A stretch of 64,000 nucleotides of DNA from contig CM039508.1 in NCBI GenBank assembly GCA_022432975.1, positions 47,953,646-48,017,645 on the forward strand. Reading direction: 5' to 3'. A model generated the notes under the pieces. That model was given only the letters and a program-made list of their open reading frames with translations. It had not been told where the DNA came from and ran no database searches. Position numbers and translations under genes: made by a program. Every line of letters begins with the position of its first letter. Within the stretch, counting starts at the first letter, position 1. This document shows, in pieces, positions 164 through 44,826 of this stretch. The stretch comes from Begonia masoniana. Its lineage: Eukaryota > Streptophyta > Magnoliopsida > Cucurbitales > Begoniaceae.

Positions 164-2932
164 TTATGCATTCTGTAAGAATTCTCGTGTTAAAAAATCA
201 GGAAGAGAGTTACTGGCTCCCTTAATATATTCAATAGAGAAATCATAAACAGATAATTCTGCTTGCCATCGGGCGAATATTTGTTTTGAAACAAGATTTT
301 TAATATCTTTTTCTAATATATCTTTAGCAGATGAGCAATCAATTCGAATTAAAAATGATTGATTTAATAAATCATCCTGAAATTTGGAAATACATTTAAT
401 AAGAGATAAAATTTCTTTTTTAACAGTAGAATAATTTAATTGAACTGGTTTCCATAGACCAGAAGTAAATCTAATCAATTCTTCAATATTTGTATTAGGA
501 TTTAATTGTTTAAGAATGCCACCATAACCAATATTAGAAGCATCTGTTTCAACAATTTTTTTCCAAACTGGATTAGATAAATTTAAACAGGGTAAACTAA
601 TAGCTTTTTGTTTTAAAATAATAATAGCTTGAGTATGTTGTTCACTCCATGGTTTAGGATTTTTTCTTAATCTTTGATATAAAATAGCTGTGTCTTGAGC
701 TAAATTTTTATAAAAATCTCCTAAATAATTTAAACTACCTAAAAATCTTTGTAGTTGTTTTTTGTCTGTAATTTCATTAGGAAATTTAGATGCAAATTCA
801 TTACATCTATTTATAGGAATAATAGTACCTTGATTAATGTTATGTCCTAGAAATCTAACTGTTGTTTGAAATAATTTCATTTTAGGAGCAGATAAGACTA
901 GTCCATTATATTTAATAGTTTCTTTTATAATTTGTAAATGTTTTATATGTTGATCTAGAGATTCTGAAAATACTAAAACATCATCAATATAAACGATACA
1001 AAATTTAGAATGAATTTTAAATATGTCATTCATAATATTTTGAAACTCAGAGGGAGCATTTTTCAAGCCAAATGGCATAACATTCCATTCATAATGTCCT
1101 AAGGGGACTACAAATGCAGTCTTATACCTATCCTTTTCCGCTACTTGAATTTGCCAATAACCTGATTTTAAATCAAATTTAGAAAATATTAAGGCAGACT
1201 GAAGTCGGTCTAATAGATCTTTTTTATTAGGAATAGGATACCTAATCCATTGTAAAGCATCATTTAAAGGTTTATAATTTATAACTAATCTAGGAACACC
1301 TCTTTCCTTTTCGGCAGCATTATTAACATAAAAGGCAGTACAACTCCAAGGTGATTTACTAGGTCTAATAAGTTTTTTTTCTAATAAAGATTCTATTTCT
1401 TTAGAACATAATTCTAAATATTCAGATTTCATTTGACTTGGTCTAGATTTAGTAGGAATGAATTTTTCATTATAATTAGCAATATAAGGAAGATCAACAA
1501 TATGTTTTTTCCTGTCCCAAAATATATTTGGTGTATCTCCACATACTTCAGTAATAAAAGTATTTTCAATATTTTTAATTTTTTCAATTATTTTAGGTTG
1601 TTTTAATTGATCTTCAATCTTTAAATAATAAATTTCTGATTTTAAAAAACTAATATGTTTTTGTTTATCTAAACATTGAGTTTTTAATTCATTTATAAAA
1701 GTATCTTCAGGGTACATAATAAAAGCATAATAAATAGATTGATTATGAAAAGTAGCACTTATACCTTTTTCATCAATAGTTTTAATAGGCATTATCATAT
1801 TTAAAAATGGAGTGCCTAAAATAATTTTATGTTGTAAATTTTTAACCAATAAAAAAGTAGTTGTTATACTAACATCATTATTGCAAACACTAGCATCAGA
1901 TAATTTATAGTTTACTTTTAATTTATTTCCACCGGCTGAATATAAAGATTGTTTTGTTTTCTCAAAATATTTAGTGGGAATAATTCCTTCTTTTATACAA
2001 TTAATATCAGCACCACTATCTATAAGGGCTATTAAATCAGAGATAATATAGTCTTGATTTATAATTAGATTAATTTTAATAAACCATTTTTGAAATCTCA
2101 ATTTTGTTAAAATATTTATATCATTATAAGGGGTAACTTCATTATTAGAAGAGGAACCAATATCCATATGGGTTTCTATTTTTTCCAGTCTTTCATTAAT
2201 ATTAATCTGATATTGATTGTAATTATACAATAATTCTTGTAATTCATTTTTCAGATCTTTAACTTCTCTATTAAGATCTTGAATAGTTACAGGTTTAATT
2301 TTAGCCTGATCTATTCTATTAAATACTTCTGTTAAAGAATAATGTTGACCTCTTAACTTAGGTTTTTCAATCATTTCTTTATCATTATTTTGATTAATAA
2401 TAATTTCAATAATCTTTTTTCTAAAGATAGGATCATGTATTTGATCTAAATTATCTAAAATATTTTGTTGCTCAGTTGTCAATACATTGACTTGACATTT
2501 TTGACAGGTTTCATCATCAGATGAGGACGACTCATCAATAATATCTTCTGAGTCAGAAGATTCTTCCGAAGAAGTTAATAATAGTTTTTCTAAGGCTACT
2601 TTGAACCTTTCATCTATATCAAGATTATTTAATTTTTTTAGAGTAGTACATTTAGATGCATAGTGGCCAAATTTACCACATTTATAACATTTAATTTCAG
2701 ATAAGTCCTTTTTAGACTTCTTCTTTTTAAATGTTTTATTTCTATTAGAAGATTCGGGAATATCATATTTTTGCTTATATTTTTTAAAAGCTCTTTTCTG
2801 TAATTTCTTTTTACGTTTATATTTCATATATTCTTCGCTTTTGTCAGCTTTGGATAAACCTTTTAAATTAGGTTTAGGAATATGATAAGCAAATTGATCA
2901 CAAAATTCACCTATTTCTTTTTTTTTTACCAT
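164..2932 (-). CDS. Endogenous pararetrovirus zinc knuckle-protease-reverse transcriptase-RNase H (type A)
   Basis: This 922-codon reading frame is the back half of a caulimovirid polyprotein. A basic region leads into a CX2CX4HX4C zinc knuckle (CYKCGKFGHYASKC, about residues 82-95) and a serine/acid-rich stretch. A predicted coiled-coil segment (DLNREVKDLKNELQELL) follows. Next come a retroviral-type aspartic protease with DSGAD (about 305) and ILGTPF, reverse transcriptase with YIDDVLVFS (about 660), and RNase H starting near ETDASNIGYGG (about 800). The domain order and motifs are those of Caulimoviridae. The frame is separated from the coat-protein frame (2907-4589) by a run of ten A in the sense strand, where other copies have six. 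In intact copies the two are one ORF, so the start at 2932 is only the first ATG after the break and not a natural start. It is the only uninterrupted RT in the window. The enzyme would copy the pregenomic RNA into DNA. Confidence 0.93.
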   Translation of the reverse strand: MVKKKEIGEFCDQFAYHIPKPNLKGLSKADKSEEYMKYKRKKKLQKRAFKKYKQKYDIPESSNRNKTFKKKKSKKDLSEIKCYKCGKFGHYASKCTTLKKLNNLDIDERFKVALEKLLLTSSEESSDSEDIIDESSSSDDETCQKCQVNVLTTEQQNILDNLDQIHDPIFRKKIIEIIINQNNDKEMIEKPKLRGQHYSLTEVFNRIDQAKIKPVTIQDLNREVKDLKNELQELLYNYNQYQININERLEKIETHMDIGSSSNNEVTPYNDINILTKLRFQKWFIKINLIINQDYIISDLIALIDSGADINCIKEGIIPTKYFEKTKQSLYSAGGNKLKVNYKLSDASVCNNDVSITTTFLLVKNLQHKIILGTPFLNMIMPIKTIDEKGISATFHNQSIYYAFIMYPEDTFINELKTQCLDKQKHISFLKSEIYYLKIEDQLKQPKIIEKIKNIENTFITEVCGDTPNIFWDRKKHIVDLPYIANYNEKFIPTKSRPSQMKSEYLELCSKEIESLLEKKLIRPSKSPWSCTAFYVNNAAEKERGVPRLVINYKPLNDALQWIRYPIPNKKDLLDRLQSALIFSKFDLKSGYWQIQVAEKDRYKTAFVVPLGHYEWNVMPFGLKNAPSEFQNIMNDIFKIHSKFCIVYIDDVLVFSESLDQHIKHLQIIKETIKYNGLVLSAPKMKLFQTTVRFLGHNINQGTIIPINRCNEFASKFPNEITDKKQLQRFLGSLNYLGDFYKNLAQDTAILYQRLRKNPKPWSEQHTQAIIILKQKAISLPCLNLSNPVWKKIVETDASNIGYGGILKQLNPNTNIEELIRFTSGLWKPVQLNYSTVKKEILSLIKCISKFQDDLLNQSFLIRIDCSSAKDILEKDIKNLVSKQIFARWQAELSVYDFSIEYIKGASNSLPDFLTREFLQNA

Positions 2933-4589
2933 CTAAATTTTGTTTTTTAAATTGATATTGTAATTTCATATCATTACATAAACTTAAACCTTCTTGAACA
3001 CATACACTAATTAAATGACCATAAGTACATGTTGCCCAAGGAATAAATTGTCCATCATTTAATTCTAATAATTTCTTTTTAATTCTTTTAGAAAATAAAG
3101 GAGGTAATCCATCAATAAATTTAGATTTCCAGTGCTCAGAATTAGCATCTGGTCTTTGCATAACTTTAGTTATAAAAACATCTTTATACCATCTAAACTC
3201 TGTAAGAGTTTTACATCTTAAGTTTTGTAATAATTCTCTACCTCTTTCTTGTCTTTGTTCGGTAGCTCCAATAAAATGTAATATTATAGCTTGAATTAAA
3301 GTATAAACACTATCTTCATAAACCATATTATTGTCATGTCTTACAGCGGTTAATATTTCATGACGCTGTTCTAGAGATAAATAATTATCCCACCAACCTT
3401 TTAATGCACCATTAAAGCCATTTACAATAAAAGCAGCAATATCAGAATCTTTATTCTGAGAGGCTTGGCAAACACTAGAATACATTAACATTTTTTGGAG
3501 TAATTCATAAATTTGATATTCAGTTAAACCATCAAGATTCCAATCATATATAGTTTTGGCAGTATAAGAAGATTGTTCATGTAACCAATTTTCTTCCCAT
3601 AATAAATCGACGGGAGTAGGTCTTTTATAATAAGTTCTTCTAATTCTATCACCACCAGGCCCTGTATCCTCATATCTAACTCTATGAATACTTAAAGGGT
3701 TTCTAGATTCTGGTAATGGATAGATATGATTACATTCAATAAAAGATTTTTCTATTTTGTTAATATCTTTTAAATGAGAAGGCATATTCTCGTCTTCACT
3801 AGAAGAATCATTAGCTGGCCAAGAGCTAGAATCAATAGTTGGATGAATTTCAGTGTGATAATTTTCCATAGAATTTTCAGCTTGTGTATTAATAACACTA
3901 ATATTTAATTGTTTCATTCTTTTAGCTAATTGATCAATAAAGTCATTATTGTCTTTGGGAGATTTAAAATTAAATTTGGATATCACTATAGGAGGTTTTA
4001 AATCAGGAATAGAAATATTTTCTTTCTTTATTCTAGATGTCGCAGAAGATGTCGTAGGAATATCTTCTATAACCTTTTTATTTGATTTCTCAGATAATTT
4101 AATTAATTGAGTTTCAACTCTTGATAATTGTTGTCCTATAGTACTCATATGAATATTATTATAATTCATTTGTTTAATGATAATATCATTCTTATCTTCA
4201 ATAGGTTGAGATAAAGTAACTAAAGGTATAGCTTCAATAGTATTATTCTTTAGGCTAATAGGTTCTAAAGGTGGATGTATAGATTTAATACTTTCATTGT
4301 TTTTTATATTCCAATTTTTACAATGATTATTATATTCTTCTAAAATATTAATTTGATATTTTGATACAGGTTTATAAAATATCGTCCAATACCATTCACT
4401 AAAAGTTATTAGATCCTTTTTTAAATCTAAATAAGAGTAATATAAATCTTTTAATTTTTTAAATTCTTCAGATTTTTTATAATATTTTTTATCAATCCAA
4501 TTTCTGAGAATAGCATTTTCAGGTGATTGATATTCTTCGTTACATATTTTTCTAATATCATCTTTGCTTAAATTTGAGTAATTCATCAT
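2907..4589 (-). CDS. Endogenous pararetrovirus coat protein region (type A polyprotein, N-terminal part)
   Basis: This is the first 560 codons of the coat/polymerase polyprotein. The N-terminal 170 residues are Lys/Asn-rich with a likely coiled coil (QQLSRVETQLIKL). An acidic/serine patch (NDSSSEDEN) follows. The conserved coat core, about 347-530, includes YDWNLDGLTEYQ, LKGWWDNYL and LTEFRWYKD, which resembles the coat region of petuvirus- and florendovirus-like Caulimoviridae. The ORF begins at a double ATG that overlaps the movement-protein stop (ATGATG/TGA), which suggests coupled or leaky-scanning translation. It ends early in KKKRNR because of a four-base expansion of an A homopolymer around 2920-2930. 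Unit 28379-31360 reads through this point. Expected role: capsid formation around viral DNA. Confidence 0.9.
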   Translation of the reverse strand: MMNYSNLSKDDIRKICNEEYQSPENAILRNWIDKKYYKKSEEFKKLKDLYYSYLDLKKDLITFSEWYWTIFYKPVSKYQINILEEYNNHCKNWNIKNNESIKSIHPPLEPISLKNNTIEAIPLVTLSQPIEDKNDIIIKQMNYNNIHMSTIGQQLSRVETQLIKLSEKSNKKVIEDIPTTSSATSRIKKENISIPDLKPPIVISKFNFKSPKDNNDFIDQLAKRMKQLNISVINTQAENSMENYHTEIHPTIDSSSWPANDSSSEDENMPSHLKDINKIEKSFIECNHIYPLPESRNPLSIHRVRYEDTGPGGDRIRRTYYKRPTPVDLLWEENWLHEQSSYTAKTIYDWNLDGLTEYQIYELLQKMLMYSSVCQASQNKDSDIAAFIVNGFNGALKGWWDNYLSLEQRHEILTAVRHDNNMVYEDSVYTLIQAIILHFIGATEQRQERGRELLQNLRCKTLTEFRWYKDVFITKVMQRPDANSEHWKSKFIDGLPPLFSKRIKKKLLELNDGQFIPWATCTYGHLISVCVQEGLSLCNDMKLQYQFKKQNLDGKKKRNR

Positions 4590-5272
4590 AATTTAAATTC
4601 CATTTCTGAAACAGTAGGTGACTCTCTTTTAGTGTGAGAGGTTTCTCCTTTTTCATATTTCGAATTATTAAATTGATTAGAATAAACACCATGAGGTATT
4701 TGTTGTTCAGATATTTTTAAAGCTTCAATATTAGAAATAGGAGTTTCAGATACAGAAAATCTAGAACTAGGTAAATCTACTTGATAAGGAGGAATAGATG
4801 ACCTAGCAGATAGACTTCTGGAAAAAGATAAATTAGGATAATCATTAAAATAAATGGGACCATGACATAAACTGGTTTGTATAACACCCATTAAAGATTC
4901 TTTATAATTTTGACTCCTAGCGTCTCTAAGAGTAGCTAATATACTAGCATTTAAACCTGGAATAGTCAATGGTTTAAAAGCTATTTGAATAAGTCCAATA
5001 TGAATATACTTATATTTAGCAAAATAATTTTGAATATCTTTTAATCCTAATAATTTTATAGTTTTTTCATTAGTATCTAAGCAGATAGTTTGCTCAGAAG
5101 TTTTAACAATACGATTAATAAGATTTTCAAAAGTGCCTATTTTATAAATAGTTTTTGGCTCAATATCGGGAATTGTCCAATTATTTAATACTTCTTCTTG
5201 AGATAATTCTATATTTTCCTCATTTTTAATAGAATTTTCAGAGAATATATGTGAGATCAAATTCATATTCAA
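4586..5272 (-). CDS. Endogenous pararetrovirus movement protein (30K superfamily), unit 1
   Basis: This intact 228-codon ORF carries the Caulimoviridae movement-protein core. HIGLIQIAFKPL lies near residues 92-105, LRDARSQ near 113-120, and GPIYFNDYPN near 140-150. Proteins of this 30K superfamily form tubules or gate plasmodesmata for cell-to-cell spread. The C-terminal 70 residues are Ser/Pro-rich and probably disordered. The start is the first ATG after a leader of about 500 bases. The stop overlaps the coat ORF start by four bases. In petuviruses and florendoviruses the movement domain is fused to the coat polyprotein, so the split arrangement here is a useful classification character. 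Confidence 0.92.
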   Translation of the reverse strand: MNMNLISHIFSENSIKNEENIELSQEEVLNNWTIPDIEPKTIYKIGTFENLINRIVKTSEQTICLDTNEKTIKLLGLKDIQNYFAKYKYIHIGLIQIAFKPLTIPGLNASILATLRDARSQNYKESLMGVIQTSLCHGPIYFNDYPNLSFSRSLSARSSIPPYQVDLPSSRFSVSETPISNIEALKISEQQIPHGVYSNQFNNSKYEKGETSHTKRESPTVSEMEFKL

Positions 5273-5795
5273 TTTGTAGAATTTACTTTCAAATAACCTA
5301 ACTACTTGACTTCAAGTTTTCAACTATAAATAGATATAAGGTTTAACTTCGTATTGATCTTCGATTCATCTCGTATTGACTTGCGGATAACTTCGTATTG
5401 ATCTATTAATTCCCTCTATACTAAACATGAGACTAACAAGATTACTTGCACTGTCAAAGACTAATTTCACAAAGTTTGCAAATGTCTCTCAACCATGCAA
5501 ATGGGTATTTTTGCCTGACGCCTTTCTCACGGCTAAGCGGCCACACACCCCAACACGGCAACAGAAAGACATTCACAAACAAAGTGAAGTCAAAGCAAGT
5601 ATTCTTTGCACATGAAAGCACGGAAAGAGTTAATAGAATCGTGTTGAAGAGATCACCTCATCGTATTGAGAAGAACAAAAGATCGTATTGAAGTTAAAAC
5701 GAATATCGATTTACATTAGAAAACTTATCGACAAGTCCTTAGTTATTTGAAAGCAAATACAAATTTAGCCAATCATTTGTCTCTGATACCAGAAG
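5273..5795 (-). other. Viral leader, unit 1 (primer site to movement-protein start)
   Basis: This is the non-coding leader between the minus-strand primer site and the movement ORF. It matches the leaders at 17454-17977 and 32044-32562 almost base for base. It contains the repeated octamer CAATACGA in sense orientation. Small ORFs of 62 and 81 codons exist here only on the antisense strand and are not supported as genes. The 5' side joins a B1 fragment at a run of C (about 5791-5800) instead of continuing into the terminal repeat. Confidence 0.85.
5779..5791 (-). promoter_or_regulatory. tRNA-iMet primer binding site, variant
   Basis: TGGTATCAGAGAC on the minus strand is the plant initiator-tRNA-Met complement used by caulimovirids to prime minus-strand DNA, with one change (A for C at the 12th position) from the TGGTATCAGAGCC of the other units. 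The same variant occurs at 37103-37115. Confidence 0.85.
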
Positions 5796-5796
5796 G

Positions 5797-6052
5797 GGGG
5801 AAATTTATCCTCTGTTTTTATAATTTCAGGATTAATAGAGAAGAACCATAAATGGGTTCTCTGAGGATTCTGAATATAGAACATATTTGTCCAAGCATTA
5901 ACATAATCCCAATAATTATACTTTTGATCATTCTTGAGGCTTCTAATAGCAAACACATTTAAGCCCCATTCTTGAGGATGTATAATCCTGATAATATAAC
6001 ATTTCGAATGAGTGATAGCAGATATTCCATATTCACCAATATAATGGTGCAC
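5797..6052 (-). pseudogene. Fragment of viral ORF B1 fused to a leader
   Basis: This is a piece of about 85 codons from the middle of ORF B1. It covers the stretch from HHYIGEYG through WGLNVFAIRS to INPEIIKTEDKFPP and is nearly identical to the corresponding part of 21621-22817. It has lost both ends. Downstream it joins the leader at a run of C present in both partners. Upstream it meets an oppositely oriented coat fragment at about 6053. The same two junctions recur near 36830-37100. Confidence 0.85.
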
Positions 6053-6053
6053 A

Positions 6054-7257
6054 AAATTACAATATCAATTTAAAAAACAAAATTTAGATGGTAAAAAAGA
6101 AATAGGTGAATTTTGTGATCAATTTGCTTATCATATTCCTAAACCTAATTTAAAAGGTTTATCCAAAGCTGATAAAAGTGAAGAATATATGAAATATAAA
6201 CGTAAAAAGACATTACAGAAAAGAGCTTTTAAAAAATATAAGCAAAAATATGATATTCCCGAATCTTCTAATAGAAATAAAACATTTAAAAAGAAGAAAT
6301 CTAAAAAAGATATTTCTGAAATTAAATGTTATAAATGTGGTAAATTTGGCCACTATGCATCTAAATGTACTACTCTAAAAAAATTAAATAATCTTGATAT
6401 AGATGAAAGGTTCAAAGTAGCCTTAGAAAAACTATTATTAACTTCTTCGGAAGAATCTTCTGACTCAGAAGATATTATTGATGAGTCGTCCTCATCTGAT
6501 GATGAAACCTGTCAAAAATGTCAAGTCAATGTATTGACAACTGAGCAACAAAATATTTTAGATAATCTAGATCAGATCCATGATCCTATCTTTAGAAAAA
6601 AGATTATTGAAATTATTATTAATCAAAACAATGATAAGAAATAATTGAAAAACCTAAGTTAAGAGGTCAACATTATTCTTTAACAGAAGTATTTAATAGA
6701 ATAGATCAGGCTAAAATTAAACCTGTAACTATTCAAGATCTTAATAGAGAAGTTAAAGATCTGAAAAATGAATTACAAGAATTATTGTATAATTACCATC
6801 AATATCAGATTAATATTAATGAAAGATTGGAAAAAATAGAAACCCATATGGATATTGGTTCCTCTAATGAAGTTACTCCTTATAATGATAATGATATAAA
6901 TATTTAACAAAATTGAGATTTCAAAAATGGTTTATTAAAATTAATCTAATTATAAATCAAGACTATATTATCTCTGATTTAATAGCCCTTATAGATAGTG
7001 GTGCTGATATTAATTGTATAAAAGAAGGAATTATTCCCACTAAATATTTTGAGAAAACAAAACAATCTTTATATTCAGCCGGTGGAAATAAATTAAAAGT
7101 AAACTATAAATTATCTGATGCTAGTATTTGCAATAATGATGTTAGTATAACAACTACTTTTTTATTAGTAAAAAATTTACAACATAAAATTATTTTAGGC
7201 ACTCCATTTTTAAATATGATCCATTGCCTAGGTAAAACTATTGATGAAAAAGGTTAA
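6054..7257 (+). pseudogene. Viral coat C-terminus, zinc knuckle and protease fragment
   Basis: This plus-strand fragment begins in the coat C-terminal region (KLQYQFKKQNLDG). It runs through the basic region, the CCHC knuckle, the serine/acidic patch with CQKC, the coiled coil and the protease (DSGAD, ILGTPF). One-base deletions in A or T runs near 6638 and 6905 break the frame, compared with 20750-21628. The fragment ends at about 7257, within the post-protease region, where host-like sequence starts. It lies head-to-head with unit 1. Confidence 0.88.
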
Positions 7258-8190
7258 AGTGTTATTCTAATTTCTATATGTAAAAACATTAGTCTCATTG
7301 AAATATTGTAATAAAACCTTAATGGGAGCCCATCGTCAGATATTATCTTAAACCGCCTTTTTGTATCTTTCTTGTACAACTGTAATCCACTTTCGCTTGT
7401 CTAATAAAACCAACATCTAATTAAAAACAGGCAATATCACCTAATCTTCTGCATGGATATCGCGTTTTCTAACCCTCTCTTTTTCTGCACACTCCCAATT
7501 AATATTTCGCTAACCAGGAAGAATGAAGCTGCACATCGTAGGTTTTGGGGGGCCAGTGATACATTTTAACTATTTGCATTTATATATCACTTTTACAAGT
7601 CCATAACGTCTGCAACATGCTCGGAGAATGTTATTGATTGGGCGATTTGCATCGAGGTTCGAAAGAGCAAACCAGCATGGAGACCCATGGTGTGTCAAGG
7701 GTTGTCTTGATCGGACGATTATAACGAACGAATCATGTTTCTTTTCAATCCGTTAAGCTTTTGCACGTTACGCCTCGAAGTCGCCATATCAAGCTCTTGC
7801 TGGTTTTCCTCCATCTGGAATTTACCCAGTGAAAGATGTAGAGCAGTTCGCCAGAACTATCTTCGTAGTCGCTAACCCTAGCGACATTCTGGCAAAACTT
7901 ATTCTTCAGCTCCGAACGGAATTAGCTCAAAGCTGCTCTTTAAAGTCTAGTCTCTTCAATAAATCTTTCTGGTTACAACTTTCTGGTTGTCCATATTTTT
8001 GGGTGCTTGCCCATCCGCCAGGCGTGACGTCCCTTTGTTTTGGCCGGAATGGGGTAGCGCCGTTGATTTCGCCATCGTTCCTGCTTTTCTCTGGAGTACT
8101 AAGGGGCTGGAGGGTGTAGTCCAGCGTTTCCTTTTATGATTTAGTTTGAAGTATTTTGTAAGTCTTGGAGACCTGATTAGTCTATTTGTC
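7258..8190. other. Non-viral stretch without a recognised gene
   Basis: I see no coding signal that I can support. Short ORFs of 80-100 codons occur at 7829-8119 and 7956-8201, but they overlap each other on opposite strands and show no recognisable motif. The sequence adjoins the P450 relic and may be its original flank. Confidence 0.5.
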
Positions 8191-9680: not shown

Positions 9681-9684
9681 CGCT

Positions 9685-10085
9685 GACGCATCATACATAT
9701 TATAACCGCGAAGGAGAGAAAGTACAGAGGCATACTTAATCTGTTATTCACAATAAGTTGTGCATACAAAGGGGAGAGAGGAGCAATCAGAGAGAGTTTT
9801 TAAAGCGAGAGAGAAGGCAAACTCTAAAAACTTGAGAAAGAAATGCAAACAGCCCCTTATCTAGAAAGCGGAGGTACAAAGCTAATTAAAAAAGGAGACC
9901 TAATAATAAAAGTAGATTCCACATAGTGTATGGTGGGACCTAGTCTAGTTACAAAAAACTCTGCTTAGTCCAACATGTGTATGGTGGGACTAGTCTAGTA
10001 CAAAACAAAACCCATCTTTATAGGAGAGTAATAAAGGATCGGGTCCTTTACTCAAATAGGGACGGGCACCTTGTCTATAGATAAG
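9685..10085 (-). promoter_or_regulatory. Error-rich viral terminal repeat, promoter and 3' UTR (unit 3, type C)
   Basis: This matches 32573-32918 with many indels. Recognisable in minus-strand order are the 3' UTR with the CCACATAGTG hairpin, a corrupted TATA region near 9855, and the terminal-redundancy region with a TTATTCACAATA block near 9746. It would be the end of a type C unit. The many one-base changes make promoter function doubtful. Confidence 0.75.
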
Positions 10086-10089
10086 GATG

Positions 10090-10745
10090 GATAAACCCCT
10101 AGTTCTTCCGCTTTAATGTCTTCAAATAGTTTAGCACCATAAGCTTCTTGCCATAGCGATAAAATCGGATCATAAGTTTTCATATCTTCGCTCAGAACGG
10201 TCAAACTTTATATGTGGGAGAAGACCATTGAGTAGATTTATAGAGTTTATTCTGCGATACAGACGTTGAAGGGCAGCGGTATAGTTATATCGGCGCCAAA
10301 GTTTCACATTTCGATGAGGAATATTATCATGCATTCTATATCTTTATGAAAAACTTATAATTTCTATATTATTCTGCCACCAAGGCTGAATTAATCCTTG
10401 ACGCTAATTTCGCTTGGAAATAGGAAAGTCAGAAGCCTGTCAATAGGATCATAAGTTTATCACGATCAGAAACCAACGATATAATAGAAGCCATCATATT
10501 TGATTAGGTCATAAAGAGTCCCATTATAAAAGTTCGTTTATACTGATAGATACCTCATACACATTTAACAATATGGAAAATCATTCGGACAATAGCTCTT
10601 GCCACATGAGATAATCGTAAGATTGCTCTATCAACCATAGGTAGACATCCCAATAATAATATAGCGTAGATGTATATGTATAACCGCCTAAAAATCGAGC
10701 GGAAATAAATATAAGTCTTTCCATAAAAGGGAAGAATAGGTCTGA
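10090..10745 (-). pseudogene. Degraded ORF C2 and C-terminal half of ORF C1
   Basis: In the minus sense this region runs from the C1 C-terminal half (near 10745) into C2 (ending near 10095). It aligns with 23594-24027 and 32919-33190 but with frequent indels. No continuous frame survives. It joins a viral tandem repeat at 10745 through a CCCTATGTTTTGGCG sequence, the same join that is seen near 24028. Confidence 0.75.
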
Positions 10746-10905
10746 CCCCCTATGTTTTGGCGAATAAACCAAAATACTTGGCTTTTGCGAATATAACCTT
10801 TGGCTGAAAAATACCCATATGTTTTGGCGAATATAACCAAAATACTTGGCTTTTGCGAATATTACCCTTTGGGAATATAACCAAAATACTTGCTTTACCC
10901 CTACT
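10746..10905 (-). repeat. Viral short tandem repeat, unit 3
   Basis: Imperfect copies of the 28-bp and 16-bp repeat are present with the CCATATG spacer, arranged as in 1-145. Here the repeat lies between the RNase H end and C1-like sequence. Confidence 0.8.
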
Positions 10906-13390
10906 TGACAGGGATATTGACATTTCTGTAAGAAGTATCGTGATACAAATCAGGAAGGAAGTTACGGCTCCTTAATATATCAAATAGAGAAATCATAAAC
11001 AGATAATTCTGCTTGCCATCGGAGCGAATATTTGTTTTGAAACAAGTGTTTTACTATCTTTTTCTCAATATCTTAGCAGATGAAGCAATCAATTAGAATT
11101 AAAATGATTGATCTTATAAATCACTCCCTGAAATTTGGAAAATACATTGTAATAAGAGATAAAATTTCACCTTTTTAAAAGTAGAATAATTAATTGAACT
11201 GGTTCTAGCCAGATAGTAAATCTAATAAATCTGTCAATCTTTGTATTAGGTTTAATTTGTTTAGACCTGCCACCATAACCAGATTAGAGCATCGTTTCAA
11301 CAATATTTTTCCAAACTGGATTCGAAAATTTAAACAGGGTGTAAAATCTAATGCTCTGTTTTAAAAATCCTAATCGCTTGAGATGTTGTCATCCTGTTCG
11401 GATTTTTACTTCATCTGGATATAAATAGCTTGTTTGAGCTAAAATTTTATAAAAATCTCCATAAATATCTAAACTACCTAAAAATCTTTGTAAGTTGTTT
11501 TTTGTATGTAATTTCATTAGGAAATTTAGATGCCAAATTAATACATCTATGTATAGGAAGAATAGCTACCGTGATTTAATGTTCTGTCCTAGAACTAATG
11601 TTGTGTGAAATACTTTCCTTTTAGGAAAAGATAGACTTAGTCCATTATATTTAATATGTTTCTTTTCATATTTGTAATGTTTTATATGTTGATCAGAGTT
11701 CTGAAAAATCCTAAAACTAAATATAAACGATACAAATTTAGAATGAATTTAAATAGTCATTATAATATTTGAAACTCAGGACATTTTTCAAGCCAAATGG
11801 CATAGACATTCCATTCATAAAGTCTCCAAGGGCTGCCTACATCAATCGCAGTTCCTCTATACCTATCCTTTCGCTACTGCATTTGCCAACTACACCGTGA
11901 TCTTTTACATCACATTTAGAAAATATTACGGCAGACTGAAGTCGGTCTCTAGATCTTTTTCTAGGAATAGGATACCCTATTCATTGCTAAAGCTATCATT
12001 TAACGGTTTATAATGTATAAAAATCTAGGAACACCTCGTGCTTTCGGCCAGCAGTATTAACATAAAGCAGTACAACTCCAAGGCTGATTATAGGTCTAAT
12101 AAGTTTTTGTCATAAGATTTGCTATTTCTTTAGAACTCATTCTACCATATTCAGAATTCATTGAATGGTCTAGATTTAGTAGGAAGAATTTTTTCATTAA
12201 ATTTAGCATATAAGACGAGCAACAATAGTTTTTCCTGTCCCAAAAATATATTTGGTGTATCTCCACATACTTCAGTAATAAAAGTCTTTTCAATATTTTT
12301 ACATTTTGTCAGATTTAGTTGTTTTCATTGATCTTCAATCTTTCCAATAATAAATTCTGATTTTACAAAACTACTAGTTTTTGTTTATCTAAACATGATT
12401 TTAATTCATTCATAAAAGTATCTTCAGGTTAATAATTAAAGCATCATAAATAGAGTGTTATGAAAAGTAGCTATACTTTTTCATCAATAGTTTTAAATAT
12501 CGGACTTATCATATTTAAAATGGAGTGCTTAATTAATTTTATGTTGTAAATTTAACCAATAAAAACATTAGTTGTATACTACATCATTATTGCAAACACT
12601 AGCATGCAGATATTTATAGTTTACTTTTAATTTATTTCCCCGGTGCATATAAAGATTGTTTTGTTTTCACCATATTTAGGTGGGAATAATTCCTTATTTT
12701 ATAAATTAATATCCGCCCCACATCTTAAGGCTATTAAATCAGAGATAATATAGGTTTGAGTTATAATTGTAGTAATTTTAATAAACCATTTTTTGAAAAT
12801 CTCAATGTGTTAAAATATTTAATCATTATAAGGGGTAACTTCATTATTAGAAGAGGAAAACCATAGCCATTGGTTTCTATTTTCGTCTTTCATTATGTAA
12901 GCTGATATTGATTGTAATTATACAATAATTCTTCCGGAAGTCATTCTTTTCAGACTCTTTAACGTCTCTATTAATATCTGGAATAGTTAAGTTACTTTTA
13001 GATAGCTCTATTATTCAATACTTCTGTTAAAGAATTAATGTTTCCTCTAATTAGGTTTTTCCCTCATTTTTCTCCTTTATTTGATTAAGAATAATCTCAC
13101 TAATCTTTTTCAAAAGATAGATAGTGTATTGCTCTAAATATCTACCATCTTGTGTTGCTCAGTTGTCAATCCATTGCTTGACATTTTGACAGGTGTTCAT
13201 TCTCCGCTGAGGACGACTCATCAATTAATATCTTGACGTCAGCAGTTCTCCGACGCAAGTTCCTACTAGTTTTTCTCAGGCTCCTTCTGAACTTCATCTA
13301 TATCGCTTATTACTTTTTTAGAGTAGCCAAATACCATTTAGATGCCTAGTGCCAAATTTACACAGTATAACAGTTAATTTCGCTACGTCC
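10906..13390 (-). pseudogene. Heavily corrupted protease-RT-RNase H copy (type A)
   Basis: The sequence parallels 164-2700 base by base. The RNase H end is near 10930, RT is between about 11400 and 12200, the protease and coiled coil are near 12700-13050, and the zinc-knuckle region is near 13330-13390. There is an indel or substitution every 10-20 bases, so no frame is open for long. Towards 13390 the similarity dissolves into pyrimidine-rich sequence. The error type (many short insertions and deletions in otherwise matching order) is more like a poor consensus than old decay. Confidence 0.8.
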
Positions 13391-16300: not shown

Positions 16301-16460
16301 ATATTTAGCCATTTTTGCCCCCTTTCCAACCTCCTCCTCTGACATCCCCCTCACCATAAGTCTGTACAGCTCATTCTTCGACACCTCATGACGTACTCTA
16401 AGCCAAATCGCCCGCCCCTCTGCCTAGCAACCGTCCCTTACACACAAGCACGATGCCTAC
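13391..16460. other. Pyrimidine-rich low-complexity block replacing viral sequence
   Basis: About 3 kb is dominated by C and T on the plus strand, with long C runs near 14250-14320 and 14690 and a run of about 20 G near 15884-15904. It sits exactly where the coat region and most of the movement ORF of this viral copy should be (about 2.4 kb). The flanking sequence grades into it without a sharp edge. ORFs up to 173 codons exist only because such composition lacks stop codons. No gene is supported. It looks like sequencing or consensus noise, though a true simple-sequence insertion is not excluded. Confidence 0.7.
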
Positions 16461-16625: not shown

Positions 16626-16626
16626 A

Positions 16627-17440: not shown

Positions 17441-17453
17441 GCTTCCCCCCTTC

Positions 17454-26421: not shown

Positions 26422-26423
26422 AA

Positions 26424-32043: not shown

Positions 32044-32566
32044 TTTGTAGAATTTACTTTCAAATAACCTAACTACTTGACTTCAAGTTTTCAACTATAA
32101 ATAGATATAAGGTTTAACTTCGTATGATCTTCGATTCATCTCGTATTGACTTGCGGATAACTTCGTATTGATCTATTAATTCCCTCTATACTAAACATGA
32201 GACTAACAAGATTACTTGCACTGTCAAAGACTAATTTCACAAAGTTTGCAAATGTCTCTCAACCATGCAAATGGGTATTTTTGCCTGACGCCTTTCTCAC
32301 GGCTAAGCGGCCACACACCCCAACACGGCAACAGAAAGACATTCACAAACAAAGTGAAGTCAAAGCAAGTATTCTTTGCACATGAAAGCACGGAAAGAGT
32401 TAATAGAATCGTGTTGAAGAGATCACCTCATCGTATTGAGAAGAACAAAAGATCGTATTGAAGTTTAAAACGAATATCGATTTACATTAGAAAACTTATC
32501 GACAAGTCCTTAGTTATTTGAAAGAAAATACAAATTTAGCCAATCATTTGGCTCTGATACCAGAAG
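32044..32566 (-). other. Viral leader and primer site, unit 6
   Basis: This is a clean leader with the primer site TGGTATCAGAGCC at 32550-32562 on the minus strand and the CAATACGA octamers. One of the octamers is disturbed by a base loss near 32125. It continues into a terminal-redundancy segment, so unit 6 follows a type C end in tandem. Confidence 0.88.
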
Positions 32567-32572
32567 GGGGGA

Positions 32573-32918
32573 AGCGAAGGAGAAGAAGTAAGAGAAAATA
32601 CTTACTTGTTTATTCACAATAGTTGTAGCATACAAAGAGGGAGAGAGAGAGAGCAATCAGAGCTAGAGTTTTTACAAGGAGAGAAGGCAAACTCTAAAAA
32701 CTTGAGAAAGAAATGCAAACTAGCTCCCTTATATAGAAACGGGAGGTACAAAAGCTAACTTAAAAAAGGAGACATAATAATAAAAGTAGATTCCCACATA
32801 GTGTATGGTGGGACCTAGTCTAGTCACAAACAAAACTCTTTATAGGAGAGTACTAAGATGCTTCCTTTAATAAAATAGTAGGGGCCACCTTGTCTATCAG
32901 ATAAGGATGGATAAACCC
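32573..32918 (-). promoter_or_regulatory. Type C/A-style 3' UTR, promoter and terminal redundancy
   Basis: The poly(A) signal is at 32609-32614 and TATATAAG at 32728-32735. Just upstream of the TATA box this version has a longer spacer (AAGTTAGCTTTTGTACC on the sense strand), which the type A unit at 44827-44890 shares and type B lacks. The TCCCAC/GTGGGA hairpin is kept. Confidence 0.83.
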
Positions 32919-33190
32919 CTAGTTCTTTCCCGCTTTAATTTCTTCAAATAGTTTAGCACCATAAGCTTCTTTGCCATAGCGAATAAAATCGGCATCATAA
33001 GTTTCTCCATATCTTCGGCTCCAGAAAGGTAAAACTTTATCTGGTGGAGAATGACCCATTGATGTAGATTTATAGAGTTTCTTATTTTCTGCTATACAGA
33101 AGTTGCAAGGGCAGCCCGGTCTATAGGTTATATAGGCGCCAAAAGTTTCAAATTCTCGATGAGGAATTTTATAGGCATTCATATATCTTT
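32919..33190 (-). pseudogene. ORF C2, C-terminal part
   Basis: An open frame of 87 codons from MNAYKIPHREFE to the stop is the natural C-terminus of C2. It contains CPCNFC, two Cys pairs that could bind a metal, and ends in a charged segment. The full ORF would start at the MDFPISKRN region visible at 23733. Upstream it is cut at about 33195 and fused to a protease-region fragment. Function is unknown. Confidence 0.78.
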
Positions 33191-33199
33191 CATGAAAAT

Positions 33200-35458
33200 T
33201 ATATCATTATAAGGGGTAACTTCATTATTAGAAGAGGAACCAATATCCATATGGGTTTCTATTTTTTCCAGTCTTTCATTAATATTAATCTGATATTGAT
33301 TGTAATTATACAATAATTCTTGTAATTCATTTTTCAGATCTTTAACTTCTCTATTAAGATCTTGAATAGTTACAGGTTTAATTTTAGCCTGATCTATTCT
33401 ATTAAATACTTCTGTTAAAGAATAATGTTGACCTCTTAACTTAGGTTTTCAATCATTTCTTTATCATTATTTTGATTAATAATAATTTCAATAATCTTTT
33501 TTCTAAAGATAGGATCATGTATTTGATCTAAATTATCTAAAATATTTTGTTGCTCAGTTGTCAATACATTGACTTGACATTTTTGACAGGTTTCATCATC
33601 AGATGAGGACGACTCATCAATAATATCTTCTGAGTCAGAAGATTCTTCCGAAGAAGTTAATAATAGTTTTTCTAAGGCTACTTTGAACCTTTCATCTATA
33701 TCAAGATTATTTAATTTTTTTAGAGTAGTACATTTAGATGCATAGTGGCCAAATTTACCACATTTATAACATTTAATTTCAGATAAGTCCTTTTTAGACT
33801 TCTTCTTTTTAAATGTTTTATTTCTATTAGAAGATTCGGGAATATCATATTTTTGCTTATATTTTTAAAAGCTCTTTTCTGTAATTTCTTTTTACGTTTA
33901 TATTTCATATATTCTTCGCTTTTATCAGCTTTGGATAAACCTTTTAAATTAGGTTTAGGAATATGATAAGCAAATGATCACAAAATTCACCTATTTCTTT
34001 TTTACCATCTAAATTTGTTTTTTTAAATTGATATTGTAATTTCATATCATTACATAAACTTAAACCTTCTTGAACACATACACTAATTAATGACCATAAG
34101 TACATGTTGCCCAAGGAATAAATTGTCCATCATTTAATTCTAATAATTTCTTTTTAATTCTTTTAGAAAATAAAGGAGGTAATCCATCAATAAATTTAGA
34201 TTTCCAGTGCTCAGAATTAGCATCTGGTCTTTGCATAACTTTAGTTATAAAACATCTTTATACCATCTAAACTCTGTAAGAGTTTTACATCTTAAGTTTG
34301 TAATAATTCTCTACCTCTTTTCTTGTCTTGTTCGGTAGCTCCAATAAAATGTAATATTATAGCTTGAATTAAGTATAAACACTATCTTCATAAACATATT
34401 ATTGTCATGTCTTACAGCGGTTAATATTTCATGACGCTGTTCTAGAGATAAATAATTATCCCACCAACCTTTAATGCACCATTAAAGCCATTTACAATAA
34501 AAGCAGCAATATCAGAATCTTTATTCTGAGAGGCTTGGCAAACACTAGAATACATTAACATTTTTGGAGTAATTCATAAATTTGATATTCAGTTAAACCA
34601 TCAAGATTCCAATCATATATAGTTTTGGCAGTATAAGAAGATTGTTCATGTAACCAATTTTCTTCCCATAATAAATCGACGGGAGTAGGTCTTTTATAAT
34701 AAGTTCTTCTAATTCTATCACCACCAGGCCCTTTATCCTCATATCTAACTCTATGAATACTTAAAGGGTTTCTAGATTCTGGTAATGGATAGATATGATT
34801 ACATTCAATAAAAGATTTTTCTATTTTGTTAATATCTTTTAAATGAGAAGGCATATTCTCGTCTTCACTAGAAGTATCATTAGCTGGCCAAGAGCTAGAA
34901 TCAATAGCTGGATGAATTTCATTGTGATAATTTTCCATAGAATTTTCAGCTTGTGTATTAATAACACTAATATTTAATTGTTTCATTCTTTAGCTAATTG
35001 TTCAATAAAGTCATTATTGTCTTTGGGAGATTTAAATTAAATTTGGATATCACTATAGGAGGTTTTAAATCAGGAATAGAAATATTTTCTTTCTTTATTC
35101 TAGATGTCGCAGAAGATGTCGTAGGAATATCTTCTATAACCTTTTTATTTGATTTCTCAGATAATTTAATTAATTGAGTTTCAACTCTTGATAATTGTTG
35201 TCCTATAGTACTCATATGAATATTATTATAATTCATTTGTTTAATGATAATATCATTCTTATCTTCAATAGGTTGAGATAAAGTAACTAAAGGTATAGCT
35301 TCAATAGTATTATTCTTTAGACTAATAGGTTCTAAAGGTGGATGTATAGATTTAATACTTTCATTGTTTTTTATATTCCAATTTTTACAATGATTATTAT
35401 ATTCTTCTAAAATATTAATTTGATATTTTGATACAGGTTTATAAAATATCGTCCAATA
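33200..35458 (-). pseudogene. Coat-zinc knuckle-protease fragment with frameshifts, unit 6b
   Basis: This internal piece of the polyprotein runs from just after the coat N-terminus (SKYQINILEE, near 35440) to the region before the protease (near 33200). The open parts are about 34555-35460 and 33720-33908. Differences from 28379-31360 are mostly single-base losses in A or T runs. Both ends are recombination joins, to a terminal repeat at 35459 and to C2 at about 33197. Confidence 0.85.
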
Positions 35459-35460
35459 CC

Positions 35461-35800
35461 CACAATAGTTGTAGCATACAAAGAGGGAGAGAGAGAGCAA
35501 TCAGAGCTAGAGTTTTTACAAGGAGAGAAGGCAAACTCTAAAAACTTGAGAAAGAAATGCAAACTAGCTCCCTTATATAGAAACGGGAGGTACAAAAGCT
35601 AACTTAAAAAAGGAGACATAATAATAAAAGTAGATTCCCACATAGTGTATGGTGGGACCTAGTCTAGTTACAAACAAAACTCTTATAGCCCACATAGTGT
35701 ATGGTGGGACCTAGTCTAGTTACAACAAAACTCTTTATAGGAGAGTACTAAGATGCTTCCTTTAATAAAATAGGAGGGGCCACCTTGTCTATCAGATAAG
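35461..35800 (-). promoter_or_regulatory. Type C 3' UTR, promoter and terminal redundancy, second copy
   Basis: The TATA region is at 35572-35579 (TATATAAG on the minus strand). A direct duplication of about 53 bases at 35637-35745 repeats the CCCACATAGTGTATGGTGGG hairpin and its flank. The terminal-redundancy part is joined directly to coat sequence, with leader and movement ORF missing. Confidence 0.8.
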
Positions 35801-35804
35801 GATG

Positions 35805-36313
35805 GATAAACCCCTAGTTCTTTCCCGCTTTAATGTCTTCAAATAGTTTAGCACCATAAGCTTCTTTGCCATAGCGAATAAAATCGGTCATCATAATTTC
35901 TCCATATCTTCTATCCCGAACAGGTAAACTATCTGGGGAGAATGGACCCATTGATGTAGATTTATAGAGTTTTCTTATTTTCTGCTCTACAGAAGTTGCA
36001 AGGGCAGGCCCGGGTCATAGGTTATATAGGCGCCAAAAGGTGCAAATCTCGACGAGGAATTTATATGCATTCATCATCTTTCATGAAAATTATAATTTTA
36101 GATATCTCTGCCATAAGGCTGAAAATAATATATGACGCATATTTCGCTTTTGGAAATAGGAAAGTCCATAAGGCCTGTCCATAGGATCATCAGTTTATTC
36201 ATATCAGGATATAATAGAAGCATCAATATTTATTAGGCTCATAACGAGTCCATATAAAGGTCGTTTTGGATTATATGATAGATAACTCATAAAAAATTTA
36301 ACCATATCGGAAA
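35805..36313 (-). pseudogene. ORF C2 and end of C1, degraded
   Basis: This matches 32919-33190 and 23594-23880 with many indels. The C1 end and most of C2 can be followed, but no frame survives. Similarity stops at 36313, where unrelated sequence begins. Confidence 0.75.
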
Positions 36314-36688
36314 TCCATTTCTTTTAGTTTTTTTGCTGGAAGGTGTCAGGGGGGCGTTCTGTGGCTGGATGGCAAAATGAGTAACACTGGTTAAGTTTTT
36401 ATGAACATTACTGCATGTCATGAATACTGAAGGCTAACATAGGGTGAGATTATTATATCAAGTGGGATTTCAACAGCCTGCTTAATTTCAGAGTCTAAAG
36501 TATTCTAAAAGTATTAAATATATGTTTTAATTGGTGATGTCTTCCGCTTATGAATTCTGGCTAAGTCTTGTCTTTCCATGATATGATGTGGTTTGTTGTA
36601 ATAGAGTATTGAGACAGTGAAGTTAGAAGTCTAAGCTAAGTCAGTTACGGAAGATGCAAATATATCTTCGCTTATCGTAGATGAAGGC
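36314..36688. other. Non-viral contig end, nothing recognised
   Basis: These 375 bases show no viral similarity and no supported gene, and they end at the assembly gap. They may be host flank or misassembled sequence. Confidence 0.5.
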
Positions 36689-36788: not shown

Positions 36789-37098
36789 ACCTATTCTTTT
36801 TTACCATCTAAATTTTGTTTTTTAAATTGATATGTAATTTTGTGCCACCATTTATAAATTGGTAATATGGAATATCTGCTATCCCTCATTCGAAATGTTT
36901 TCTATTAGCATATTATACATCCCAAGAATGGGGCTTAAATGTTTTGCTATTAGAAGCCTCAAGATGATCAAAAGTTTTAATTGGATATGTTTAATGCTTG
37001 TACAAATTATGTTTCTATATTCAGAATCCTCAGAGAACCCATTTATGGTTCTTCTCTATTAATCCTGAAATTATAAAAACAGAGGATAAATTTCCCCC
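36789..37098 (+). pseudogene. Inverted coat scrap joined to ORF B1 fragment
   Basis: The first 50 bases are antisense coat sequence. From about 36841 the B1 fragment follows in plus sense, up to the run of C where the leader starts. It is the reverse complement of the arrangement at 5797-6110, with extra indels. Confidence 0.8.
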
Positions 37099-42813: not shown

Positions 42814-44826
42814 GGTTATATTCGCCAAAGGTTATATTCGCAAAAGCCAGTATTTTGGTTATATTCGCAAAAGCCAGTATTTTGGTTATATTCGCCAAAG
42901 GTTATATTCGCAAAAGCCAGTATTTTGGTTATATTCGCCAAAGGTTATATTCGCAAAAGCCAGTATTTTGGTTATATTCGCCAAAGGTTATATTCGCAAA
43001 AGCCAGTATTTTGGTTATATTCGCCAAAGGTTATATTCGCAAAAGCCAGTATTTTGGTTATATTCGCAAAAGCCAGTATTTTGGTTATATTCGCAAAAGC
43101 CAGTATTTTGGTTATATTCGCCAAAGGTTATATTCGCAAAAGCCAGTATTTTGGTTATATTCGCCAAAGGTTATATTCGCAAAAGCCAGTATTTTGGTTA
43201 TATTCGCAAAAGCCAGTATTTTGGTTATATTCGCCAAAGGTTATATTCGCAAAAGCCAGTATTTTGGTTATATTCGCAAAAGCCAGTATTTTGGTTATAT
43301 TCGCAAAAGCCAGTATTTTGGTTATATTCGCAAAAGCCAGTATTTTGGTTATATTCGCCAAAGGTTATATTCGCAAAAGCCAGTATTTTGGTTATATTCG
43401 CCAAAGGTTATATTCGCAAAAGCCAGTATTTTGGTTATATTCGCAAAAGCCAGTATTTTGGTTATATTCGCCAAAGGTTATATTCGCAAAAGCCAGTATT
43501 TTGGTTATATTCGCCAAAGCCAGTATTTTGGTTATATTCGCAAAAGCCAGTATTTTGGTTATATTCGCAAAAGCCAGTATTTTGGTTATATTCGCCAAAG
43601 GTTATATTCGCAAAAGCCAGTATTTTGGTTATATTCGCCAAAGGTTATATTCGCAAAAGCCAGTATTTTGGTTATATTCGCAAAAGCCAGTATTTTGGTT
43701 ATATTCGCCAAAGGTTATATTCGCAAAAGCCAGTATTTTGGTTATATTCGCCAAAGGTTATATTCGCAAAAGCCAGTATTTTGGTTATATTCGCCAAAGG
43801 TTATATTCGCAAAAGCCAGTATTTTGGTTATATTCGCCAAAGGTTATATTCGCAAAAGCCAGTATTTTGGTTATATTCGCCAAAGGTTATATTCGCAAAA
43901 GCCAGTATTTTGGTTATATTCGCAAAAGCCAGTATTTTGGTTATATTCGCCAAAGGTTATATTCGCAAAAGCCAGTATTTTGGTTATATTCGCAAAAGCC
44001 AGTATTTTGGTTATATTCGCCAAAGGTTATATTCGCAAAAGCCAGTATTTTGGTTATATTCGCAAAAGCCAGTATTTTGGTTATATTCGCCAAAGGTTAT
44101 ATTCGCAAAAGCCAGTATTTTGGTTATATTCGCAAAAGCCAGTATTTTGGTTATATTCGCAAAAGCCAGTATTTTGGTTATATTCGCCAAAGGTTATATT
44201 CGCAAAAGCCAGTATTTTGGTTATATTCGCAAAAGCCAGTATTTTGGTTATATTCGCCAAAGGTTATATTCGCAAAAGCCAGTATTTTGGTTATATTCGC
44301 AAAAGCCAGTATTTTGGTTATATTCGCCAAAGGTTATATTCGCAAAAGCCAGTATTTTGGTTATATTCGCCAAAGGTTATATTCGCAAAAGCCAGTATTT
44401 TGGTTATATTCGCCAAAGGTTATATTCGCAAAAGCCAGTATTTTGGTTATATTCGCAAAAGCCAGTATTTTGGTTATATTCGCAAAAGCCAGTATTTTGG
44501 TTATATTCGCCAAAGGTTATATTCGCAAAAGCCAGTATTTTGGTTATATTCGCCAAAGGTTATATTCGCAAAAGCCAGTATTTTGGTTATATTCGCCAAA
44601 GGTTATATTCGCAAAAGCCAGTATTTTGGTTATATTCGCCAAAGGTTATATTCGCAAAAGCCAGTATTTTGGTTATATTCGCAAAAGCCAGTATTTTGGT
44701 TATATTCGCCAAAGGTTATATTCGCAAAAGCCAGTATTTTGGTTATATTCGCCAAAGGTTATATTCGCAAAAGCCAGTATTTTGGTTATATTCGCCAAAG
44801 GTTATATTCGCAAAAGCCAGTATTTT
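42814..44826 (+). repeat. Two-unit tandem array (27 bp and 16 bp) after RNase H
   Basis: The array is built from two units that share the start GGTTATATTCGC. Unit X continues AAAAGCCAGTATTTT (27 bp) and unit Y continues CAAA (16 bp). I count 55 X and 33 Y. 55x27 plus 33x16 is 2013, exactly the length of the interval. Y never occurs twice in a row, while X runs are 1 to 4 long, so the array is a mixture of 43-bp (Y+X) and 27-bp (X) steps. Only one variant unit was seen (near 43512). All X units lack one base compared with the 28-bp edge units, so expansion happened after that deletion. It lies between the RNase H stop and the viral promoter. Confidence 0.95.

What the first reader, a model, noticed from the sequence alone, without database searches (positions are those of the whole stretch)
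164..44826. Three alternative 3' modules on one shared viral 5' module: a possible multipartite endogenous pararetrovirus
Seen: leader, movement protein and coat-protease are nearly identical across units, but the protease is followed by RT-RNase H (164-2932; 41200-42673) in type A, by ORFs B1+B2 (21621-23284; 26723-28386) in type B, while type C pieces carry C1+C2 before closely similar promoters and terminal repeats. Known: two-component organisation has been proposed for some endogenous florendoviruses. Inference: A supplies RT in trans to RT-less B and C. Alternative: one longer genome was fragmented. Unit 3 (RT, repeat, C1, C2, promoter, 17.3 down to 9.7 kb) would fit that for A+C.
Basis: partly seen in the sequence, partly recalled or inferred. 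Interest (0 to 1): 0.88.

Follow-up and report, generated by a model that had tools for sequence, protein, structure and literature searches.

The report
Three-part endogenous plant pararetrovirus
This plant genome carries three kinds of viral DNA copies that share the same beginning and end but differ in the middle, and only one kind encodes the copying enzyme, so they likely once spread together as complementary parts of one divided virus.

Summary
The window holds rearranged copies of an endogenous caulimovirid. Two proposed classes are real: type A (MP, coat, protease, RT-RNase H, repeat, C) and RT-less type B (MP, coat, protease, B1, B2). Outside the window is a third class, D, which lacks protease and RT and carries a new ORF X plus diverged B1' and B2'. 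A, B and D share one promoter, poly(A), primer-site and leader cassette; the coat tree mixes them as shuffled labels would, and AU tests reject each type as a clade. RT, B1, B1' and X mostly show dN/dS well below 1. A sister lineage in the same genome has RT directly followed by B1, so the division is likely derived. Best reading: deletion-derived, complementing, recombining components, a step beyond the known bipartite florendoviruses. Particles, infection and need for every part are untested.

The parts
1..5802 (-). Type A unit 1: leader 5204-5802, MP 4586-5272 (lacks 369 nt of the longer MP), coat 2675-4585, protease 1657-2674, RT-RNase H 164-1651, start of repeat 1-123. Its C region and promoter lie left of the window (L022).
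   Evidence: module map; Pfam; L022
37092..45058 (+). Type A unit (right): primer site 37103, leader, MP 37620-38299, coat 38303-40182, protease 40183-41191, RT-RNase H 41199-42673, expanded 43-nt repeat array about 42691-44828, promoter 44826-45058; many frame breaks; no C region
17443..23592 (+). Type B unit (+): primer site 17454, leader, MP, coat, protease, B1, B2, promoter; no RT
26420..32573 (-). Type B unit (-), 98.7% identical inverted partner: leader 31975-32573, MP 31357-32043, coat-protease ORF 28379-31360, B1 27190-28426 (one stop), B2 26723-27193, promoter 26420-26588
21621..22817 (+). B1 ORF (398 aa, RG-rich N-terminus, no significant Pfam or PDB match); 104 scored hits in the genome
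22814..23284 (+). B2 ORF (156 aa), no known family
23419..23592 (+). Shared 3' cassette: TATATAAG near 23436, AATAAA near 23553; in other units the primer site follows directly
17454..18040 (+). Shared leader; predicted to fold into one very long hairpin (-193 kcal/mol, z -11.25)
24550..26420 (+). Truncated B fragment: coat part, protease, first 166 nt of B1
33199..35460 (-). Truncated coat-protease fragment whose protease module (to its position 559) is joined to C
32562..33203 (-). C piece plus promoter, running into the B(-) primer site
35461..36315 (-). Second C piece plus promoter
5796..7264 (.). Scrambled fragments: B1 piece 5796-6054 (-), coat-protease piece 6054-7264 (+)
36840..37098 (+). 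B1 piece joined to the leader of the right A unit, close to the assembly gap 36689-36788
9708..17351 (-).

Best explanation
The window holds copies of two (A and B) of at least three genome types of one endogenous caulimovirid, which share promoter, poly(A) signal, primer site, leader, MP and coat genes but differ in their middle modules; type A likely supplied reverse transcriptase and RNase H in trans, while B and D likely supplied the B1/B2 proteins that A has lost. Shown from sequence: the anatomy of A, B and D; the same TATA-AATAAA spacing in all three; RT and B1 not found in one unit of this lineage among the hits and loci examined; low dN/dS in most RT, B1, B1' and X comparisons; mixing of the three types on the coat tree; a sister lineage with RT and B1 contiguous. 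Inferred: the ancestor was a single genome with RT, then B1 and B2; A arose by deletion inside B1-B2, B by deletion of RT-RNase H, D by deletion of protease and RT; the RNAs of all three were packaged by the common coat protein and copied by A's enzyme; and template switching kept the shared 5' and 3' parts alike. Untested: particles, infection, and whether all parts were needed.
For: A with C in one unit: L003, L007, L011, L016, L018, L019. B: coat-protease runs into B1 at 11 places on 9 contigs (-4 nt at 4; 160-196 nt at 7); D: a shared break at coat-protease residue 822-828 with B1' 638-656 nt on, at 6 places on 5 contigs. D proteins: the 828-aa coat ORF of L001 has no protease match up to E = 1; X 180-182 aa, B1' 438 aa, B2' 158 aa (stop to stop) in L001, L004 and L010; same order in a far D relative, L034. 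0 of 14 RT hits at 92% or more have B1 within 3 kb downstream; of the other 72, three do at 14, 17 and 283 nt and a fourth at 2308 nt. Of 9 fetched or window units that carry an RT domain (unit 1, right A, L003, L007, L011, L015, L016, L018, L019) none is followed by B1. Coat tree, 21 rows (7 A, 9 B, 5 D): 10 type changes against a shuffled mean of 10.0; AU rejects A, B and D as clades (p 4e-5, 1e-42, 6e-47). Leader tree, 20 rows, also rejects all three (p 6e-6, 7e-7, 1e-5). dN/dS: RT 0.05-0.26 in 5 of 6 comparisons, B1 0.11-0.52 in 6 of 7, B1' 0.04-0.25 in 4 of 4 between copies, X 0.06-0.26 in 6 of 6; X 0.15 at dS 0.67 between L001 and L034. Against L034, dS is 0.64-0.74 in the D-specific genes (L001) but 0.34 in coat (L001) and 0.31 in MP (L010), as expected if the shared part is exchanged repeatedly. 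TATA and AATAAA 118-122 nt apart in 16 of 17 3' ends. MP deletion alleles cross types: the 369-nt deletion in A, B and D; the 338|648 deletion in A and B on three contigs.
Against: No particle, episomal DNA or RNA data. Exchange could partly be host gene conversion or duplication: L003/L005 and L025/L026 are same-locus pairs, L003 and L011 share an odd C arrangement, and L026 (C4) and L029 (C3) share about 0.85 kb of unmasked sequence at 96-97%. One of the 5 D rows in the coat tree (L027) is itself a D/B recombinant. The leader tree has fewer type changes (7) than shuffled labels (mean 9.3; as low in 11 of 200), so mixing there is not fully random. C ORF dN/dS 0.66-0.72 and B2 0.26-2.46 (B2' 0.95) do not show selection; the RT copy of unit 3 gives 1.5. 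Recombinant pieces put an RNase H tail, repeat and B1' together (L008) or B1, the A repeat and C together (L010). B and D overlap in content, so three obligatory parts are not shown.
Confidence: 0.62

Rival explanations
1. B and D are non-autonomous parasites (like defective or satellite genomes) that used A's enzymes without giving anything back; A, or an unseen helper, was sufficient by itself.
For: B and D lack RT (D also protease) but keep promoter, primer site and leader. An RT-less partner of an autonomous virus is described in rice (PMC5491270, abstract and section 6 read).
Against: A lacks B1-B2 except a fused scrap, although the sister lineage keeps B1 directly behind RT, so A also lost an ancestral gene. 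B1, B1' and X mostly have dN/dS well below 1, not expected for passengers.
Confidence: 0.22
2. One monopartite virus whose integrated copies were broken into A-, B- and D-like pieces after integration; the classes are host-side debris.
For: The locus is heavily scrambled; sister elements with RT followed by B1 exist (L035, L021/L033).
Against: The same break points recur on many contigs; B units (both in the window, L005, L028) and D units (L001, L004, L010) run from primer site to promoter; 0 of 14 close RT hits are followed by B1.
Confidence: 0.08
3. The shared 5' and 3' parts are alike because of gene conversion or duplication among chromosomal copies in the plant, not because the viruses recombined while replicating.
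For: Clusters of copies (for example C14:26.29-26.33 Mb); nearly identical coat genes in same-locus pairs L003/L005 and L025/L026; some unmasked sequence shared between contigs, L026/L029 at 96-97%.
Against: Supported pairs join different types on different chromosomes: L004 D (C14) with L019 A (C12), 99/97; L024 B (C10) with L003 A and L005 B (C3), 100/100. Most loci of the A/B/D lineage share no unmasked stretch of 200 nt or more with another chromosome.
Confidence: 0.08

Closest known systems
Bipartite endogenous florendoviruses (VvinBV, VvinDV, OsatBV, SbicV components A and B; PMC4241990, passages read)
   Same: RT-less component with MP, coat, protease and a product related to the downstream ORF; near-identical intergenic region and MP between components; compound insertions; monopartite relatives.
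   Different: There component A keeps ORF2 and loses coat and sometimes other N-terminal domains; here A keeps MP-coat-protease-RT and has lost most of B1-B2. Here there is a third class D without protease and RT but with a new ORF X. MP is a separate ORF.
Non-autonomous rice pararetroviruses eRTBVL2, ePVCVL, ePVCVL2 (PMC5491270, outline and sections 6, 8, 9 read)
   Same: Missing RT/RH, in one case replaced by a domain of unknown function; complementary partners; regulatory sequences of partners mixed on trees and kept alike by recombination.
   Different: Two partners at a time; high identity reported for the intergenic region and MP, here mixing reaches through the coat gene; ePVCVL2 lacks coat, here all types keep it.
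Sugar beet florendoviruses with divided genomes (cited in PMC10377300, passages read)
   Same: Reported there as further evidence for bipartite genomes.
   Different: Original paper not read; no third component mentioned in the passages.

Membership tests
Caulimoviridae | Movement protein, coat with CCHC knuckle, aspartic protease, RT, RNase H, no integrase | tested here: met
   Pfam for type A; no integrase match in the viral ORFs submitted
Caulimoviridae | tRNA-Met primer site behind promoter and poly(A) signal, long structured leader (features recalled) | tested here: met
Florendovirus | RT falls in the florendovirus clade | not testable with these tools
   no labelled florendovirus reference at hand; RT groups with endogenous sequences of eudicots, CaMV at 44%
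Florendovirus | single ORF1 with MP-CP-AP-RT-RH1 | tested here: not met
   MP is a separate ORF overlapping the coat ORF by 4 nt; a split ORF1 is reported for one florendovirus (PMC4241990)
Florendovirus | ORF2 of unknown function downstream of RH1 | tested here: inconclusive
   B1 follows RNase H in the sister lineage; homology to florendovirus ORF2 not tested, no reference sequence
Bipartite florendovirus component B | MP, CP, AP present, RT missing, leader/intergenic region over 90% identical to component A | tested here: met
   type B
Bipartite florendovirus component B | C-terminal extension homologous to ORF2 | not testable with these tools
   B1 stands in that place; no ORF2 reference
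Bipartite florendovirus component A | RT and ORF2 kept, coat partly or wholly lost | tested here: not met
   type A keeps coat and lacks most of B1-B2
Multipartite virus | separately packaged segments, all needed for infection (definition recalled) | not testable with these tools
   sequence only

The most novel reading that the evidence does not exclude
A truly tripartite reverse-transcribing virus, in which no single molecule carried both the polymerase and the B1 function, three circular genomes shared one exchangeable regulatory-movement-coat cassette, and lineages with deleted movement genes still multiplied, so that late spread may have been inside germ-line cells like a retrotransposon.
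Probability: 0.3. Interest if true: 0.86.

Novelty: new variant of a known kind. Interest (0 to 1): 0.62.

Why it matters
Divided genomes are common in plant RNA viruses, but for reverse-transcribing viruses the papers read here know them only from endogenous fossils with two parts. Here three parts, a sister lineage with RT and B1 together in the same genome, and many copies allow the steps from one genome to several to be read off, and they show exchange between parts that reaches through a whole structural gene. If movement-gene deletions really spread with replicating lineages, it would also catch a plant virus turning into a genome-bound element.

Tried and rejected
Third component C: rejected, C is the end of A. 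Unit 3 as evidence for A+C linkage: set aside as probable low-quality sequence; the linkage holds from other loci. MP deletions as retro-copied introns: one deletion edge (338|648), looked at by eye in the cut output, does not begin with GT; the others were not checked; several deletions show 5-12 nt of overlap (microhomology) in the module coordinates. B1 function: no significant Pfam, NCBIfam or PDB match, two unnamed database relatives, structure model of low confidence (mean pLDDT 44.8), so no fold search was made. X: no significant match, no convincing similarity to the coat-protease protein; the genome search with X did not complete. No match of B1 in phage records, as expected. Literature; several listings were capped (15 of 33, 12 of 648, 6 of 79, 8 of 3,219); no title or abstract seen there describes a three-part endogenous caulimovirid, but most papers were not opened and no supplements were available. 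The host species could not be named.
Full report
What was checked. The window lies at C7:47953646-48017645 of an unnamed 795-Mb genome. Pfam finds a movement protein, coat domains with a zinc knuckle, retroviral protease, RT and RNase H in type A; type B has everything up to the protease, then B1 and B2, which match no family significantly.

Type C is not separate. The genome search with the leader gave 41 long matches (40 of 162 candidates scored); 10-kb stretches around the best 20 outside the window were fetched. In L003, L007, L011, L016, L018 and L019, RT is followed by repeat, C and promoter (L003 and L011 hold the same broken form of C and look like copies of each other), and unit 1 of the window continues the same way to the left (L022). 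Exceptions: the window's right A unit has no C, and L008 holds only an RNase H tail, then repeat, B1', B2' and promoter (a recombinant). The C ORF begins with a piece of B1 (about residues 333-388 of the 417-aa stop-to-stop frame; E 5e-5 and 3e-7) and goes on with B2-like sequence (30% over 128 aa, E 2e-8), so A looks like a genome that lost most of B1-B2.

A third class, D. L001, L004 and L010 on three contigs carry MP, a coat ORF of 742-828 aa, a new ORF X of 180-182 aa, a scrap of the RNase H tail, B1' (62% identical to B1), B2' (46%) and the same promoter. The L001 coat ORF has a zinc knuckle and no protease match up to E = 1. By coordinates the same break (residue 822-828) with B1' 638-656 nt on recurs at 6 places on 5 contigs. 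L034 shows the same order at 80-92% DNA identity, so D is old. L027 is a D/B recombinant; L008 and the left part of L010 are other recombinants.

B is a real class too. Coat-protease runs into B1 with a gap of -4 nt at 4 places and 160-196 nt at 7, on 9 contigs. L023, L028, L029 and L030 keep the first 174 nt of RT before B1, L018 keeps nt 45-174, and the window's B units keep about 32 nt: traces of the lost RT. Three further same-strand pairs have gaps of 1105-1445 nt: L025 has the complete order with a frame break, L029 has an interrupted protease, and the third (C5) was not fetched.

RT and B1 exclude each other. Of 86 scored RT hits (35,211 first-look candidates, so a partial list that misses frame-broken copies), 14 are at 92% identity or more; 0 of these have B1 within 3 kb downstream on the same strand, and none of the 36 B1 hits at 90% or more has an RT hit before it. 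Of the other 72, three have B1 14, 17 and 283 nt on, a fourth 2308 nt on (the B1 list holds 104 hits). None of 9 fetched or window units with an RT domain is followed by B1. L035 has RT, RNase H and B1 without interruption, with its protease split by an insertion; L021/L033 has the same order with an insertion inside RNase H. A quick RT tree of 39 rows puts L035 next to the window's RT (SH-aLRT 97). The single genome is therefore the likely ancestral state.

The parts shared one cassette and exchanged it. A TATATAA-type box and AATAAA lie 118-122 nt apart in 16 of 17 3' ends of A, B and D (L030 has no exact AATAAA), and AATAAA lies 50-53 nt before the primer site at 27 of the 34 primer sites that I count as viral (some loci overlap and repeat a site). 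The leader is predicted to fold into one long hairpin (z -11.25). On the coat tree of 21 rows the types need 10 changes, the same as shuffled labels (mean 10.0), and each type as a clade is rejected. The leader tree (20 rows) also rejects each clade, though its 7 changes are fewer than shuffled (9.3). Against L034, dS is 0.67 in X, 0.64 in B1' and 0.74 in B2' (all L001) but 0.34 in coat (L001) and 0.31 in MP (L010): the shared genes look younger than the private ones. Host gene conversion cannot be excluded, and L026/L029 share flanking sequence across contigs, but some well-supported pairs join different types on different chromosomes.

The private genes look functional at the time of spread. 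dN/dS is 0.05-0.26 for RT in 5 of 6 comparisons (the sixth is noisy unit 3, 1.5), 0.11-0.52 for B1 in 6 of 7 (the seventh has no synonymous change), 0.04-0.25 for B1' copies, 0.36 between B1 and B1', 0.06-0.26 for X and 0.15 for X over a long distance. B2 is mixed (0.26-2.46; B2' 0.95) and the C ORF is 0.66-0.72, so neither is shown to be constrained. Numbers of changes are small in the close pairs.

Movement gene. The longer MP has 354 codons (Pfam E 3e-18); the window's copies lack 369 nt. The same deletion occurs in A and B copies of the window and in D copy L004; another deletion (338|648 of the window MP module) occurs in A (L003, L011, L016) and B (L005, truncated L014) copies on three contigs. 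Shared deletions across types fit exchange of the 5' cassette before integration. Whether these proteins still moved the virus is unknown.

Unit 3. Window 7.3-17.1 kb is a noisy duplicate of a host P450-like segment plus unit 1. It has 238 private RT differences against 4 in unit 1. The host segment behaves alike: L022 is 87.7% identical to the P450 copy at 57.2 kb, the unit 3 copy 74.7%. Changes to C grow until 13.4-17 kb is up to about half C. This fits bad reads better than evolution; raw reads would decide.

Verdict. A known kind of fossil (divided endogenous caulimovirid; PMC4241990, PMC5491270) in a new form: three types, a polymerase part that has lost the B1 gene, a protease-less and RT-less part with a new gene, and exchange reaching through the coat gene. 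Complementation is the best inference, not a demonstrated fact.

Noticed in passing
window 7318-17351: Probable low-quality assembly stretch: noisy copy of a host P450-like segment plus viral unit 1, ending in C-rich sequence.
   Followed up: yes
window 36689-36788: Assembly gap of 100 N inside the viral cluster.
   Followed up: no
window 49429-54079: Copia-type retrotransposon with a 1396-aa open frame and two identical 225-bp terminal repeats; probably a recent insertion.
   Followed up: partly
window 60009-61876: Nearly four copies of a 483-bp tandem repeat; related pieces at about 92% also lie inside the protease region of a type A unit on C12 (L019).
   Followed up: partly
window 42691-44828: 43-nt repeat array; in the fetched loci it accompanies type A RT or recombinants and varies from about 90 bp to 2 kb; open in three frames because its unit lacks stops.
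   Followed up: partly
window 63281-64000: Near-palindrome of about 720 bp, 89% identical to its own reverse complement.
   Followed up: no
L021:474-5609: A tandem array with a 50-bp shift fuses in frame with a B1 relative, giving a 1712-codon open frame.
   Followed up: no
G000: A sister lineage (RT 73-79% identical) is scored at 70 places, more than half of them without stops in the matched stretch: a second, larger caulimovirid family in this genome.
   Followed up: partly
L007:6581-8018: Several partial tandem copies of the MP gene inside one type A unit.
   Followed up: no
L026:3004-3818 and L029:4755-5501: About 0.85 kb of unmasked sequence next to viral pieces on two contigs is 96-97% identical; host repeat, duplication or another viral part.
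   Followed up: no
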